Source: a virus
Direction: 5' to 3' (one strand)
Length of the DNA stretch: 41,857 bases
IMG/VR virus record: IMGVR_UViG_3300034018_000439
Coordinates: 1-41,857 of that record
Positions 27,398-32,207 of this stretch are shown piece after piece. Position numbers and translations under genes: made by a program. Positions within the stretch are counted from its first letter, which is position 1, and the number at the start of each line of letters is the position of its first letter. Below the pieces are notes generated by a model, which made no database searches, was not told where the DNA came from, and saw only the letters and a program-made list of their open reading frames with translations.

Positions 27398-27447
27398 ATA
27401 TTCTGCACAATGCAGGGGTGCGCCTGCACAACGCACACATTTACCAA

Positions 27448-27825
27448 ATGAAAACGTGTCGAATCTGTAAGCAGGAGAAGCCGCTAACAGCATTTGCAAA
27501 ATATGCTAGGCTGTCCGATGGCTTGGAAACTCGCTGTAGGGAATGCAACCGCGCAAGGATCAGAAAGATTCGTGACAACAATCCGGGCTACAATAAAGAG
27601 CACTGCAAGAAGTTTAGGCTGCAAAACCCTGAGAAGCGTAAAGCGCATCGAGCAGTAGAGCGAGCAATGCGAAATGGAGCCTTAGTTAAATCGCCGTGTG
27701 TTGTTTGTGGTAACCTTAATACTGAAACTCATCATGAAGACTACAGCAAACAGTTGGATGTCATCTGGTTTTGCCGGAGACATCATGCGGAACATCACGA
27801 AAAACTCAGAGCAAACAAAATATGA
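27448..27825 (+). CDS. HNH-type zinc-finger endonuclease
   Basis: A 125-residue protein from ATG 27448; an in-frame GTG at 27418 is less likely. A first zinc module has CRIC (Cys4, Cys7) and CREC (Cys30, Cys33). A second has CVVC (Cys84, Cys87), then THHEDYSKQLDVIWFC and RRHHAEHH, which give the His-rich HNH core. Such proteins nick or cut DNA and are common as free-standing homing-like endonucleases near replication genes. It lies two genes upstream of the interrupted helicase, so it should be considered when asking how that gene was broken. The stop overlaps the next ATG (ATGA). Confidence 0.82.
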   Translation: MKTCRICKQEKPLTAFAKYARLSDGLETRCRECNRARIRKIRDNNPGYNKEHCKKFRLQNPEKRKAHRAVERAMRNGALVKSPCVVCGNLNTETHHEDYSKQLDVIWFCRRHHAEHHEKLRANKI

Positions 27826-28367
27826 ACATCAGCATAAACATTACCTACTCATCCGGCACAAAAGTCGAACTGATCGTCCCTCTTGAGGAGCCATGCCAGA
27901 TCGTCAGTGAACCAGAGTCACCTGTGACACCTGAGCCAGTACAGCCTGCGCAGGACTTAGCAGATGCCATGTGCATCGTCACAAACAAAGAGCTTGAGTC
28001 GTCTGGCAAGCGGTACACTTCTGTTAACCAACTTATCGACGATCTCTGCAAAGATCCCGAGTCAGGCAGGACGATGAGCATGTATAACATGACGTTCCAG
28101 ACTCAGGATGGCAAGGACTGGCAAGTGCCGCCAGGCTTGATGAAAGACCTCGTCATCATTTACGGCGAGAAGACCGTCGAGCAGGAACTGCTTAAGGCCC
28201 ACGCCTGGCTTGAGGCGGACACACACAGACGCAAGACTCCTCGCGGCATGGGTCGCTTCCTTAACGGGTGGCTCAGCCGTGCATCGTCGATGGTTCGGAC
28301 ACCGATCAAGACCCTGCTCAAGCGTGACAGTTTAATGTCTACCAATGGAACACAAGAAAGCTGGTAG
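27822..28367 (+). CDS. Replication accessory / helicase-loader-like protein (putative)
   Basis: A 181-residue protein starting in an ATGA overlap with the HNH gene. The C-terminal part (about 115-165) has AHAWLEADTHRRKTPRGMGR followed by FLNGWLSR. From memory this pattern (a WLE.N..RRKT..GM.RFL..WL type) ends many phage replication or primosomal accessory proteins. The N-terminal half is Pro/Glu-rich and flexible. It ends inside the next gene, the helicase N-terminal half (28345), so it may load the helicase or bind origin DNA. Role inferred. Confidence 0.55.
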   Translation: MNISINITYSSGTKVELIVPLEEPCQIVSEPESPVTPEPVQPAQDLADAMCIVTNKELESSGKRYTSVNQLIDDLCKDPESGRTMSMYNMTFQTQDGKDWQVPPGLMKDLVIIYGEKTVEQELLKAHAWLEADTHRRKTPRGMGRFLNGWLSRASSMVRTPIKTLLKRDSLMSTNGTQESW

Positions 28368-29052
28368 GCGTAGGCCGGTGGAGCTGCCACCCGACACGGT
28401 GGTGCCAACGGCGAGTGAAGCTGAGCGTGGTATAGCGTCGATTGCGCTCAACCACCCAGAGGTATTCTTGCATCACATTAGCGAGAAGAACTTCAAGGTG
28501 GGCGACATCTTCGACCCGCTGAGCCATCGGGTATGCGAAATCATCTTGCAGCAGCAGTCTCGCAACGCTTCATCCGAGATCCGCGTGATCTTCGAGAAGG
28601 TCCGCGAGACGCTGCCGGGCACAGAGTTCCACCAGCTTAGCGACTTGTACACACTCATGCCTATTGCGGCGGCGATTGGCGACCTTGTGGACATCGTCAA
28701 GAACACGGCCAAGCGTCGCACATTGCAGCATGTGGCGTATGAGACACTCATGGCGATTGCTGACTCGACCGTGCAGACGCCGGAGCTACTCAGTGATGTG
28801 GTGATGAAAGTCGAAGGACTATCTCGTGAGCTTGCTCCGCCAAAGGTCATGGACACTAAGGCGCTCCTGCTTAACGCACTGACACGCTACGAGACAGGCG
28901 ACGACGAGTCCATGCGGATAAAGACTGGTTATTCTGCTATCGACAACATCTGTCCGATCAGATACGGAGACTTTGTAGTCATCGGTGGCGAAACCAAGTC
29001 AGGCAAGACGATGCTTGCGCTTAATATAATTGCAAACTTAATAAATGAATAA
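28345..29052 (+). CDS. DnaB-family helicase, N-terminal half (ends after Walker A)
   Basis: A 235-residue protein. Residues about 25-130 resemble the DnaB N-terminal domain (SEAERGIASIALNHPEVFLH, then LSHRVCEIILQQ); a linker follows, then the start of the RecA-like motor with TGYSAIDNICPIRYGDFVVI and Walker A GETKSGKT (215-222). The frame stops 13 residues later at NLINE. Walker B and the rest of the ATPase are missing here and are found at 31623-32207. The two parts would rejoin as ...ANLIN-KGILVISLEMP, the normal DnaB order. There is no intein sequence at the break. The split is real in this sequence; whether the halves assemble is inference. Confidence 0.9.
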   Translation: MEHKKAGRRRPVELPPDTVVPTASEAERGIASIALNHPEVFLHHISEKNFKVGDIFDPLSHRVCEIILQQQSRNASSEIRVIFEKVRETLPGTEFHQLSDLYTLMPIAAAIGDLVDIVKNTAKRRTLQHVAYETLMAIADSTVQTPELLSDVVMKVEGLSRELAPPKVMDTKALLLNALTRYETGDDESMRIKTGYSAIDNICPIRYGDFVVIGGETKSGKTMLALNIIANLINE

Positions 29053-29374
29053 GCTTATCAACCTTACACCTCACGACATTATCATCACAGGATATGGCGT
29101 GATCGAGCCGAGTGGATACTCGGTGAAAGTACACTCACACCTGAGTAAAGTGGCAGACGTCGATGGTGTACCCATCATGTGCTGCAAGGACGCTAAGGTG
29201 AGCAACCTGCCGGATCCTGTGGAGGGCGTGCTTTACATTGTGCCTGGCTATGTGCGCACTACACTGCCAAAACGGACGGACTTGGCTAGTCCAACAAAAC
29301 TCATCCGCGACGGAGCTGGCAAAATCGTCGGCTGCGGGGCGCTTGAAATCAACTTTGTAGAATCTTATTCATGA
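29045..29374 (+). CDS. Conserved-type small protein, NLTPH family (unknown)
   Basis: A 109-residue protein whose ATG overlaps the stop of the helicase N-half (AATGAATAAG, 29044-29053). It begins MNKLINLTPHDIIITGYGVI and has SNLPDPVEGVLYIVPGYVR and a GAGKIVGCGALEI end. From memory this resembles a widespread small family with the LTPH start, of unknown function, found in phages and bacteria. It is the first gene inside the helicase interruption. No metal or nuclease motif is evident. Confidence 0.7.
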   Translation: MNKLINLTPHDIIITGYGVIEPSGYSVKVHSHLSKVADVDGVPIMCCKDAKVSNLPDPVEGVLYIVPGYVRTTLPKRTDLASPTKLIRDGAGKIVGCGALEINFVESYS

Positions 29375-29754
29375 AATATTCCCGTAGTCAGGCAAAGGGT
29401 CGCTGTATTGTTCACAGAGACGAAGCGACGATATTAAAAGATGACAAGCTGCCGCGAGGATTAAAGGCCGCCGTCAAGCGAGCCGCAGTTGGAACGGAGC
29501 CAAAAGTGTCTATACACACGCGCAGAAAATGCGTGCGCAAGTCAGTGTTTGATGAACGTAACACAGATCGCCGGAAGAATCTGGAGCGGTGGATTGAGAA
29601 CGCAAACAACAGCATCATTGAGACGCCGGAGAACAAACGGCGCAACCTTATCAAAGCAGCTTGGAGAAACGTAATTAGAAAAGAAAACAATGAAAAACGA
29701 AATACACTACAATTGGGAAATGCAGAAGTATCGGGGAACTCCGGGGCTATCTAA
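29371..29754 (+). CDS. Basic protein (unknown), inside the helicase interruption
   Basis: A 127-residue, highly basic protein (many Arg and Lys), mostly helical, starting in an ATGA overlap with the previous gene. It includes RRKCVRKSVFDERNTDRRKN and ends overlapping the exonuclease start by 65 bases. The long overlap means either this C-terminus or the exonuclease N-terminus is uncertain. Nucleic-acid binding is plausible from charge only. No family recognised. Confidence 0.55.
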   Translation: MKYSRSQAKGRCIVHRDEATILKDDKLPRGLKAAVKRAAVGTEPKVSIHTRRKCVRKSVFDERNTDRRKNLERWIENANNSIIETPENKRRNLIKAAWRNVIRKENNEKRNTLQLGNAEVSGNSGAI

Positions 29755-30469
29755 ACACAGCCTTGACTCGTTTGCAGTCTGCCCGGCGTACTACAAATGG
29801 AAAGAACGTCAAGAGTGGAAGCCGTCCCGCGAGATGGAGCTTGGCACGCTTGTGCACAGTCTTGCTCTTGAGGGCCGCTGTGAGTACGCTATTGCTCCAG
29901 CGTGCGATCGACGCACTAAGGAAGGTAAGCTAACGTGGGAGAACTTCTGCCAAGAGAACATTGGCAAGGTCATCCTCACCGAGGACGAAGGTGCGCGTGT
30001 GGAGGGTGCTTGTGCAGCCGTTGAGCCGCTGCTTCAGATGGTCACAGCTAAAAAGATCATCGAGGCGTCGATGTTCTGGCAACGCGACGGTGTGCAGTGT
30101 AAGGGGCGACCCGACATGATCACGGAGATTAAGGGTCGCGCAGCTATCGTCGACCTAAAGACAACAAGCGACTTCTCGAAATTCGACCACAAGTTCTTCG
30201 GCTTTGGCTACGACAAGCAGGCCGCTTGGTACACCTACGGCCTAGAGCAGATTACCGGCCAAGAGGACATCGATTTCTATTTCCTCGTCGTCGACATGCA
30301 AGCGCCTCACTTGTCGCAGTGGGTAAAGGCGTCCACGGAACTTATCGACATTGCTAACCAGCAGCTTGATGTGACGCTATCGCAGTACAAGTTGTGCCTT
30401 GATCAAGATGTGTGGCCCGGGCCACCAACGATGCGCGTCATGTTGCCAAGAAGATGGGAGGAAGCATGA
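29690..30469 (+). CDS. RecE/YqaJ-like PDDEXK exonuclease
   Basis: A 259-residue protein matching exonuclease VIII-type PDDEXK enzymes (DUF3799-like). It shows LSKHSLDSFAVCPAYYKWK (20-38), ELGTLVHSLALEG (50-62, His56), CKGRPDMI (137-144, Asp142), AIVDLKTTSDF (152-162, Asp155, Lys157) and YDKQAAWYTYGL (174-185). These residues form the metal-binding site of double-strand DNA exonucleases that make 3' overhangs for recombination. No RecT/Beta annealase is seen, so it may pair with the OB-fold protein or host factors. The ATG at 30466 overlaps the end. A later Met (residue 11) is an alternative start. Confidence 0.88.
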   Translation: MKNEIHYNWEMQKYRGTPGLSKHSLDSFAVCPAYYKWKERQEWKPSREMELGTLVHSLALEGRCEYAIAPACDRRTKEGKLTWENFCQENIGKVILTEDEGARVEGACAAVEPLLQMVTAKKIIEASMFWQRDGVQCKGRPDMITEIKGRAAIVDLKTTSDFSKFDHKFFGFGYDKQAAWYTYGLEQITGQEDIDFYFLVVDMQAPHLSQWVKASTELIDIANQQLDVTLSQYKLCLDQDVWPGPPTMRVMLPRRWEEA

Positions 30470-30708
30470 GCGACTGGGTACTTATCCGCCGCACTAACGT
30501 GTTGCAAAACGTGGAGCTGCCACGGCCTAAGAAGACGCAGGACATTATTGCCATCGGCGAGAAGGCTGCACTTGGCTCGAAGATGGAGGCGCTTATGCTT
30601 CTGCCGGAGAATCAATCAACGGATCTTATCGAGGTGAAGTATGTGCTTGAGCCGTACACCGGACAGCACTCACACACGTCTGCAAGGCCAGGTAATGGAA
30701 CGCGCTAA
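30466..30708 (+). CDS. Small protein upstream of the methyltransferase (unknown)
   Basis: An 80-residue protein starting in an ATGA overlap with the exonuclease and preceded by GGGAGGAAGC, a good Shine-Dalgarno. It begins MSDWVLIRRTNVLQNVELPR and has IIAIGEKAALGSKMEALMLL. Its stop overlaps the start of the inner methyltransferase frame (TAATG, 30706-30710), while the outer frame starts 13 bases earlier inside this gene. It may therefore set translation of both methyltransferase frames. Function unknown. Confidence 0.7.
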   Translation: MSDWVLIRRTNVLQNVELPRPKKTQDIIAIGEKAALGSKMEALMLLPENQSTDLIEVKYVLEPYTGQHSHTSARPGNGTR

Positions 30709-31654
30709 TGTGGATACTACCGAAACAATTACACACGTTGGCCTCTGTGCAGGATACGGGGGCATTGAGCTTGGACTTAAACGAGTCCTCCCAGCTTTGC
30801 GCACAGTCGCTCTTTGTGAGATCGAAGCTTTCGCTATTGCGAACTTGGTTGCAAAAATGGAAGCGGGACTCATGGACGCAGCACCTGTTTGGACGGATCT
30901 TAAAACCTTCCCTTGGGAAAGCTTTCGAGATCGAGTGGACCTCCTTACTGGCGGCTATCCCTGTCAGCCATTCAGTGCAGCAGGAAAGCGAGCCGGAAAA
31001 GACGACCCAAGACACTTGTGGCCATGGATTGCAGATGGAATTGCTGCAATGCGACCAAAACTATGTCTCTTTGAAAACGTGGAAGGACATATCTCGTTGG
31101 GGCTGTCCGACGTTATCGAAGACTTGGCAGGAATGGGTTATCGAACGACGTGGGGCATATTCAGCGCGGCTGAATGCGGCGCGCCGCACCAGCGGAAGCG
31201 AGTGTTTATCTTGGCCGTCGCCGGTGGCATCGGAGGTACGACAAGGCTTTCAGGACAGATCACGGGGCATGAAGGGCAGTCAGGAATCTCTGACAACAGT
31301 AGTCATAAAGCATGGCCATCCCGCCCCGGACAACCACAGCGCGCATGGGAGCCGCCCAGAGTCGTGGGCAACGCCAACGGCTCGCGACCACAAGAGCGGC
31401 AGGGGCAAGGAGGATCGGGACTACAAGGAGCTGACTCCGATGGTGGAGAGGACGCAAGCAGGCAAACTCAACCCGCGCTGGGTCGAGACGCTGATGGGAT
31501 TACCGATAGGCTGGACGATGCCGAGTTGTACGTCACCTGTGACTCCCGCGTAGATGAGTTGAGGTTGTTGGGCAACGGCGTTGTGCCAGCCACAGCAGCA
31601 TTAGCTTTTACCACATTACTAAATGAACAAAGGAATCCTCGTCATCTCGCTTGA
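30695..31654 (+). CDS. DNA cytosine-5 methyltransferase, outer frame (catalytic subunit)
   Basis: A 319-residue protein from ATG 30695. C5-methyltransferase motifs are clear: motif I GLCAGYGGIELGL (16-28), motif IV GGYPCQPFSAAGKRAG (86-101, catalytic Cys90), motif VI ENVEGH (127-132), motif VIII QRKRVFILA (166-174) and motif X LRLLGNGVVPATAALAF (289-305). Between VIII and X, where the target recognition domain and motif IX should lie, this frame has only Gly/Ser/Arg/Asp-rich sequence. The motif IX-like part is in the overlapping frame 30708-31553. The 3' end overlaps the helicase C-half by 32 bases. It likely methylates phage or host DNA against restriction. Confidence 0.9.
   Translation: MERANVDTTETITHVGLCAGYGGIELGLKRVLPALRTVALCEIEAFAIANLVAKMEAGLMDAAPVWTDLKTFPWESFRDRVDLLTGGYPCQPFSAAGKRAGKDDPRHLWPWIADGIAAMRPKLCLFENVEGHISLGLSDVIEDLAGMGYRTTWGIFSAAECGAPHQRKRVFILAVAGGIGGTTRLSGQITGHEGQSGISDNSSHKAWPSRPGQPQRAWEPPRVVGNANGSRPQERQGQGGSGLQGADSDGGEDASRQTQPALGRDADGITDRLDDAELYVTCDSRVDELRLLGNGVVPATAALAFTTLLNEQRNPRHLA
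30708..31553 (+). CDS. Nested methyltransferase frame carrying target-recognition-like part (beta subunit)
   Basis: A 281-residue frame that lies wholly within 30695-31654 in another phase. Its ATG sits in TAATG with the previous gene. The C-terminal third has sequences typical of C5-methyltransferases of phages: SWPSPVASEV (168-177), SWATPTARDHKSG (219-231) and KLNPRWVETLMGLPIGWT (253-270), the last resembling motif IX. The N-terminal part is Trp/Ser/Gln-rich (LPKQLHTLASVQDTGALSL, WLQKWKRDSWTQHL) and recalls proteins often predicted beside such methylases. A known precedent is M.EcoHK31I, where a nested alternative frame encodes a second subunit with motif IX. An 846-bp open second frame is very unlikely by chance. 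Confidence 0.75.
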   Translation: MWILPKQLHTLASVQDTGALSLDLNESSQLCAQSLFVRSKLSLLRTWLQKWKRDSWTQHLFGRILKPSLGKAFEIEWTSLLAAIPVSHSVQQESEPEKTTQDTCGHGLQMELLQCDQNYVSLKTWKDISRWGCPTLSKTWQEWVIERRGAYSARLNAARRTSGSECLSWPSPVASEVRQGFQDRSRGMKGSQESLTTVVIKHGHPAPDNHSAHGSRPESWATPTARDHKSGRGKEDRDYKELTPMVERTQAGKLNPRWVETLMGLPIGWTMPSCTSPVTPA

Positions 31655-32207
31655 GATGCCAGCCAACCAAATCATCGACCGTCTCGTCGCTCGGCTAGGC
31701 AACGTCAGCCTGCGTGCGCTCGCTGAAGGTGCGAAGCATGAGCGCGACATCAGGGGCGTCCACAGTGCCATCCAGAAGCTTAATAACAGCCGCTTGGTGG
31801 TGCGCGACGATCTCTATGACATAGCCAACATCTGCGCCACTGCACGAGCTATGGCGAAGAGCCCGGACGGCCTCGGTGTGCTGTTCGTAGACTACATTCA
31901 ACTCGTGCGCTGTGACCTGGGCAAGGATAGCAGCCGTGAGCGTGAGGTCGCCGAGGTCAGCCGGAGCCTGCGGCTGCTTGGCATCGAATTAGGTTGCTTA
32001 GTCATCTCGATTACGCAACTAAATGAACAGGGCAAAGCTCGCGAAAGTCGCGCAATCGGGCAAGACGCTACAGCCGTGATGGTTGTGAAGTTGTCCGATG
32101 ACGCAGAGTTCCGCGAGATTGGCATACCCATACAACGAAATGGCCCGTGTGGTGTGAGTACAAACTTACGCTTTACAGGCAAGACAGCAACATTCCACAA
32201 TGAATAA
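31623..32207 (+). CDS. DnaB-family helicase, C-terminal half (starts before Walker B)
   Basis: A 194-residue protein beginning MNKGILVISLEMPANQIIDR, which is the strand and SLEMP loop that in an intact DnaB directly follows the Walker A helix. It contains Walker B LFVDYIQL (87-94), motif H3 VISITQLNEQG (128-138) with a Gln sensor, SRAIGQDATAVMVV (142-155) and QRNGPCG (171-177). It ends normally for the family. It lacks Walker A, which lies on the product of 28345-29052. Walker B without Walker A cannot hydrolyse ATP alone, so the halves must associate if active. The ATG is preceded by TACTA and no SD. Confidence 0.9.
   Translation: MNKGILVISLEMPANQIIDRLVARLGNVSLRALAEGAKHERDIRGVHSAIQKLNNSRLVVRDDLYDIANICATARAMAKSPDGLGVLFVDYIQLVRCDLGKDSSREREVAEVSRSLRLLGIELGCLVISITQLNEQGKARESRAIGQDATAVMVVKLSDDAEFREIGIPIQRNGPCGVSTNLRFTGKTATFHNE

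What the first reader, a model, noticed from the sequence alone, without database searches (positions are those of the whole stretch)
28345..32207. Replicative helicase encoded as two genes split between Walker A and Walker B
Seen: 28345-29052 encodes a DnaB-type N-terminal domain and Walker A (GETKSGKT) and stops 13 residues later. 31623-32207 begins with the next strand (KGILVISLEMP) and has Walker B, the Q-sensor and the rest. Placed end to end they make one DnaB-like protein with normal motif order. Neither half has intein residues at the break. Known: fractured helicase (gp41) genes with split inteins and an intervening endonuclease gene have been described from metagenomes. Inference: the halves may reassemble as a two-chain ATPase split at a surface turn of the RecA fold, which would be an unusual motor. 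Alternatives are RNA-level joining or an inactive remnant.
Basis: partly seen in the sequence, partly recalled or inferred. Interest (0 to 1): 0.9.

Follow-up and report, generated by a model that had tools for sequence, protein, structure and literature searches.

The report
Phage replicative helicase split into two genes
A group of freshwater phages makes its DNA-unwinding motor from two separate genes, cut through the middle of the ATP-binding core, and both pieces have been kept intact over long evolution, which suggests the motor works as two chains that assemble without being joined.

Summary
The N-half (28345-29052) and C-half (31623-32207) match DnaB residues 11-227 and 233-438. About 100 IMG/VR contigs encode relatives of each half, and 67 non-identical pairs all break at the same place. 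The C-half always begins with Met 8 residues before SLEM; the N-half ends 11-16 residues after GKT in 64 of 67 (37 after in three). All catalytic motifs are kept. dN/dS is 0.05 and 0.04, and the halves' divergences track each other (r = 0.98). Twenty-four virus records beside the window hold only these two halves, no intact helicase.

The gap (1.3-3.8 kb) holds real genes. Intein, Rfam RNA and border-repeat signals are absent, and border nucleotides vary. Single-ORF relatives align straight across the break. This rules out chimera or decay and makes RNA, protein or DNA joining unlikely. Best explanation: non-covalent two-chain assembly of a DnaB-type hexameric ATPase, the N-chain supplying beta1, P-loop and alpha1. 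Assembly itself is inferred, not shown. Split phage enzymes are known; I found no report of a replicative helicase split like this without inteins.

The parts
28345..29052 (+). Helicase N-half, 235 aa: DnaB N-terminal (collar) domain, linker, beta1, Walker A GETKSGKT, alpha1
   Evidence: phrog_19 1e-15, Pfam DnaB_C pos 2-44; aligns to DnaB 2r6a 11-227; model matches DnaB N-terminal domain 2r5u, TMt about 0.8
29045..29374 (+). g109, unknown function (phrog_21731 / phrog_30542); start overlaps the N-half stop; present in the gap of essentially every relative
29371..29754 (+). g127, unknown, present in only some relatives
29690..30469 (+). RecE / exonuclease VIII-like PD-(D/E)XK nuclease, always between the halves
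   Evidence: phrog_412 1.1e-57, Pfam DUF3799 6e-24
30466..30708 (+). s80, small protein of unknown function; conserved and in many relatives joined to the C-half start by a 4-base ATGA overlap
   Evidence: sequence; relatives
30695..31654 (+). Cytosine-5 DNA methyltransferase (ORF listed from 30641), variable cassette lying between s80 and the C-half; its end overlaps the C-half start
   Evidence: Pfam DNA_methylase 1.5e-31, phrog_363 8e-59; absent in many relatives
31623..32207 (+). Helicase C-half, 194 aa: catalytic Glu strand (SLEMP), Walker B (FVDYIQL), TQLN/H4 motif, arginine finger (QRNGPCGV)
   Evidence: Pfam DnaB_C 3.7e-31, phrog_19 2.3e-34; aligns to DnaB 2r6a 233-438; fold search top hits all DnaB; motifs in 67/67

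Best explanation
The phage makes a DnaB-type replicative helicase as two independently translated proteins that fold together without a covalent bond. Chain 1 carries the DnaB N-terminal collar, linker, beta1, the P-loop and helix alpha1. Chain 2 carries beta2 onward: the catalytic Glu, Walker B, the Gln/H4 motif and the arginine finger. In the RecA fold beta1 lies between beta4 and beta5, so chain 1 would insert the middle strand and the P-loop into a sheet otherwise built by chain 2. The cut lies in the alpha1-beta2 turn at the end of the sheet away from the ATP site. Six such pairs would form the ring; each ATP site would use the P-loop of chain 1, the Walker B of chain 2, and the arginine finger of a neighbouring chain 2. 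Shown: two conserved ORFs with fixed borders, complete motifs, purifying selection, shared inheritance, no intact helicase. Inferred: physical assembly, hexamer, helicase activity.
For: Same break in 67 non-identical pairs; divergence between pairs reaches 54% (N) and 35% (C) of residues. Walker A, SLEMP, Walker B, TQLN...RESR and QRNGPCGV present in 67/67. dN/dS medians 0.052 and 0.039; N versus C protein distances r = 0.976, Mantel p 0.001. The window and 24 related virus records each contain exactly the two half-matches to DnaB_C and no intact one. The halves tile DnaB 11-227 and 233-438. Single-ORF relatives L346 (414 aa) and L276 (433 aa) align across the break. Folded alone, the N-half is confident up to about residue 163 but below 50 pLDDT over beta1/P-loop/alpha1, and the C-half is confident up to beta4 but below 50 afterwards, which fits a sheet that needs both chains. 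C-half ATG overlaps the upstream gene's stop in several relatives, so it is an ordinary operon gene.
Against: No two-chain model and no experiment. The low confidence of the isolated halves may reflect shallow alignments (25-28 sequences). The shared distances show common inheritance, not contact. A 2-chain P-loop ATPase split here might be unstable.
Confidence: 0.83

Rival explanations
1. The halves are joined at RNA level (self-splicing or trans-splicing intron) or by excision of the intervening DNA during infection.
For: Placed end to end the halves give one normal DnaB reading; phage genes with introns are well known.
Against: No Rfam match in the window or, at relaxed threshold, in the gap. 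Border nucleotides differ between relatives and always keep a stop and an ATG. No shared word between the two borders beyond chance: median 6, shuffled mean 6.2. The gap changes from 1.3 to 3.8 kb by gain and loss of genes. No recombinase recognised among the gap genes searched.
Confidence: 0.05
2. Protein trans-splicing by a split intein, as in fractured gp41 genes.
For: Helicase genes are known hosts of split inteins (Dassa et al. 2009, cited in PMC10343443; the paper itself not held).
Against: The N-half ends 11-16 residues after GKT in 64 of 67 pairs (37 in three), the C-half starts at its Met 8 residues before SLEM in all 67: no room for intein halves. No homing endonuclease between the halves in the window.
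Confidence: 0.01
3. The halves do not form one enzyme: one or both act alone, for example the N-half binding host DnaB or primase, or each entering a mixed ring with host DnaB.
For: The N-half has a complete collar domain that could bind host partners; no phage primase or DNA polymerase was recognised among the ORFs scanned.
Against: Each half keeps only its own share of one catalytic site, and all shares are kept together in 67/67; the two halves always occur together where the contig allows it.
Confidence: 0.09
4. Inactive remnant or assembly chimera.
For: Broken genes are common in metagenomic phage contigs.
Against: About 100 independent contigs, low dN/dS, intact motifs, no other helicase.
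Confidence: 0.01

Closest known systems
DnaB / phage DnaB-like replicative helicases (phrog_19, PF03796; structures 2r6a, 4esv, 8a3v)
   Same: Full set of DnaB domains and motifs in the same order when the two proteins are read together; collar and RecA-like domains.
   Different: Two genes and two chains, cut between Walker A and the catalytic Glu strand; H4 region shortened relative to bacterial DnaB.
Single-ORF phage DnaB relatives on L346 and L276
   Same: Same KSGKT P-loop and shortened TQLN(E/S)DG..RESR motif; C-part of L346 37% identical to this C-half and 44% to that of L152.
   Different: One uninterrupted gene of 414 or 433 aa; no g109 or RecE-like gene found on the same fetched stretch.
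Genes-in-pieces enzymes: Aeh1 NrdA split by mobE; Aeromonas phage 25 DNA polymerase 43A/43B; T4 topoisomerase gp39/gp60 (PMC2988022, PMC3653736)
   Same: Phage enzyme broken into separately translated, unjoined chains that work together (NrdA and 43A/43B shown by experiment).
   Different: Those splits are tied to a homing endonuclease or untranslated spacer in T4-like phages; here the gap holds recombination and other genes and the enzyme is a hexameric motor cut inside its ATP site.
Jumbo phage split Pol III alpha and split RNA polymerase beta/beta' (PMC7824862)
   Same: Core replication or transcription enzyme made from separate chains encoded apart.
   Different: Different enzyme; not a P-loop ATPase.
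Fractured genes with split inteins (Dassa et al. 2009)
   Same: Helicase gene in two parts with a gene between.
   Different: No intein halves and no endonuclease between the parts.

Membership tests
DnaB-type replicative helicase | RecA-like C-terminal domain with Walker A, catalytic Glu, Walker B, Gln/H4, arginine finger | tested here: met
   motifs are split over two chains
DnaB-type replicative helicase | N-terminal collar domain | tested here: met
   2r6a 11-227 alignment; fold match to 2r5u
DnaB-type replicative helicase | Domains in one polypeptide | tested here: not met
   two ORFs with own start and stop in all 67 pairs
DnaB-type replicative helicase | Hexamer, ATPase and 5'-3' unwinding | not testable with these tools
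   needs biochemistry
Split-intein fractured gene | Intein halves fused to the broken ends | tested here: not met
   no room for intein halves at the borders
Split-intein fractured gene / homing-endonuclease gene-in-pieces | Homing endonuclease gene between the parts | tested here: not met
   none among the gap genes of the window; an HNH gene lies upstream at 27418-27825
Intron-interrupted gene | Group I or II intron RNA in the gap | tested here: not met
Gene-in-pieces enzyme working as separate chains | Both parts conserved, separately translatable, no intact copy | tested here: met
Gene-in-pieces enzyme working as separate chains | Parts shown to co-assemble into active enzyme | not testable with these tools
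   needs co-expression

The most novel reading that the evidence does not exclude
A naturally two-chain hexameric helicase in which the P-loop strand is supplied in trans, so that the motor can be switched on, loaded onto DNA or opened by binding or release of the P-loop chain, or mixed with host DnaB.
Probability: 0.2. Interest if true: 0.88.

Novelty: new variant of a known kind. Interest (0 to 1): 0.72.

Why it matters
P-loop ATPases are nearly always one continuous chain through the nucleotide site. A replicative ring motor conserved as two chains broken between Walker A and Walker B would show that this fold tolerates a cut beside its central strand in nature, give a ready-made split motor for study, and raise the question of whether assembly of the halves is used to control helicase loading. 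It also warns annotators, because each half alone looks like a truncated helicase.

Tried and rejected
Rfam search at gathering and relaxed thresholds: nothing. Border-repeat test for DNA excision: no excess over shuffles. Intein: no space for one. INPHARED: only remote DnaB hits to the N-half and under 60% identity to the C-half, so no cultured phage of this family. Genome collection: one relative, on a Pedosphaera MAG contig, too weak to name the host. One viral pattern scan was wasted on an out-of-frame gap. Joined two-chain structure prediction was not attempted because altered or joined sequences are not accepted. Paper searches found no report of this helicase split; the library is partial, and PMC10343443 mentions a freshwater phage contig with a DnaB and a T4 gp41 helicase near each other, which could be the same arrangement but was not checked.

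Full report
Observation. The window is a 41,857-base IMG/VR virus record. ORFs 28345-29052 and 31623-32207 are present as described. The first matches the start of the DnaB C-terminal domain at its end and the DnaB-like phrog_19 over most of its length; the second matches the rest of both. Profiles built from relatives place the halves on one DnaB chain (2r6a) at residues 11-227 and 233-438. Nothing is missing and nothing is duplicated.

How widespread. Scans of IMG/VR found 99 stretches encoding relatives of the N-half and 106 of the C-half; profile scans gave 120 and 112. Where a locus is long enough, both halves are on it in the same order and strand. After removing identical copies 67 pairs remain. 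In every one the C-half starts with Met eight residues before SLEM; the N-half ends 11-16 residues after GKT in 64 and 37 residues after in three. The stop of the N-half, the start of the C-half and the nucleotides around both differ between relatives, yet the break stays at the same residue.

Function kept. Median dN/dS is 0.052 (N) and 0.039 (C). Protein distances of the halves correlate at 0.976. Walker A, catalytic Glu strand, Walker B, TQLN...RESR and QRNGPCGV are present in all 67. The window and 24 related virus records each contain just these two half-matches to DnaB_C; the twenty-fifth handle searched is the Pedosphaera MAG, which also holds an intact dnaB on another contig. A decaying or redundant gene would not look like this.

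What lies between. In the window: g109, g127, a RecE-like exonuclease, the small gene s80 and a cytosine methyltransferase. g109 and the exonuclease are in the gap of essentially all relatives. s80 abuts the C-half in several relatives with a 4-base ATGA overlap. Divergent relatives add a gene beginning with a GLAGSGKDTAA motif, which I read as a deoxynucleotide kinase-like protein (inference from sequence), and small variable genes. The methyltransferase is a variable cassette: in close relatives without it s80 runs directly into the C-half. The helicase halves are thus ordinary members of a replication/recombination operon.

Intact relatives. Two pattern scans and a profile comparison found single-ORF helicases on L346 (414 aa) and L276 (433 aa) that cover both profiles in order, with the same KSGKT and the shortened RESR region. 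They suggest the split family descends from a one-gene form; the direction of change was not tested with a tree.

Mechanism. In the RecA fold (established knowledge) the sheet order is 3-2-4-1-5..., so beta1 with the P-loop, held by the N-half, sits between the two parts of the sheet held by the C-half. The single-chain models behave accordingly: the collar domain of the N-half is confident while residues 185-235 are not, and the C-half is confident through beta4 and not beyond. Both match DnaB structures. With no intein, no Rfam intron and no border repeats, non-covalent assembly of two chains is the simplest reading. This step is inference. The shallow alignments limit what the model confidence can show.

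Comparison. Split phage enzymes working as separate chains are established: Aeh1 NrdA, phage 25 polymerase 43A/43B, T4 topoisomerase (PMC2988022; PMC3653736), and proposed for jumbo phage Pol III alpha and RNA polymerase (PMC7824862). What is new here, as far as the held literature shows, is a replicative ring helicase broken between Walker A and Walker B, without intein or homing endonuclease, and conserved across a whole phage group.

Noticed in passing
window 30695-31654 and 30708-31553: The cytosine methyltransferase ORF is overlapped almost end to end by a +1-frame ORF of 281 aa that matches another methyltransferase family (phrog_1008, 1e-20). The +1 frame is open for 228-495 aa in 25 of 25 loci listed (window included), while the methyltransferase frame itself is short in two; synonymous shuffles of the methyltransferase frame rarely keep it open (12 of 14 loci p <= 0.003, window p = 0.001). 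This looks like a conserved dual-coding gene pair.
   Followed up: partly
window 29045-29374: g109, always directly after the helicase N-half and usually overlapping its stop, is a conserved protein of unknown function.
   Followed up: no
window 30466-30708: s80, a small conserved protein of unknown function whose stop overlaps the C-half start (ATGA) in relatives lacking the methyltransferase cassette.
   Followed up: partly
window 27418-27825: HNH endonuclease-like gene just upstream of the helicase N-half (phrog_2340), not between the halves.
   Followed up: no
L153: The only bacterial-genome hit is a contig in a Pedosphaera (Verrucomicrobiota) MAG with the same split; possibly a host hint, possibly mis-binning.
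   Followed up: no
L201 and L147 records: The halves lie at opposite ends of these records, as expected for circular or permuted genomes cut inside the gap.
   Followed up: no
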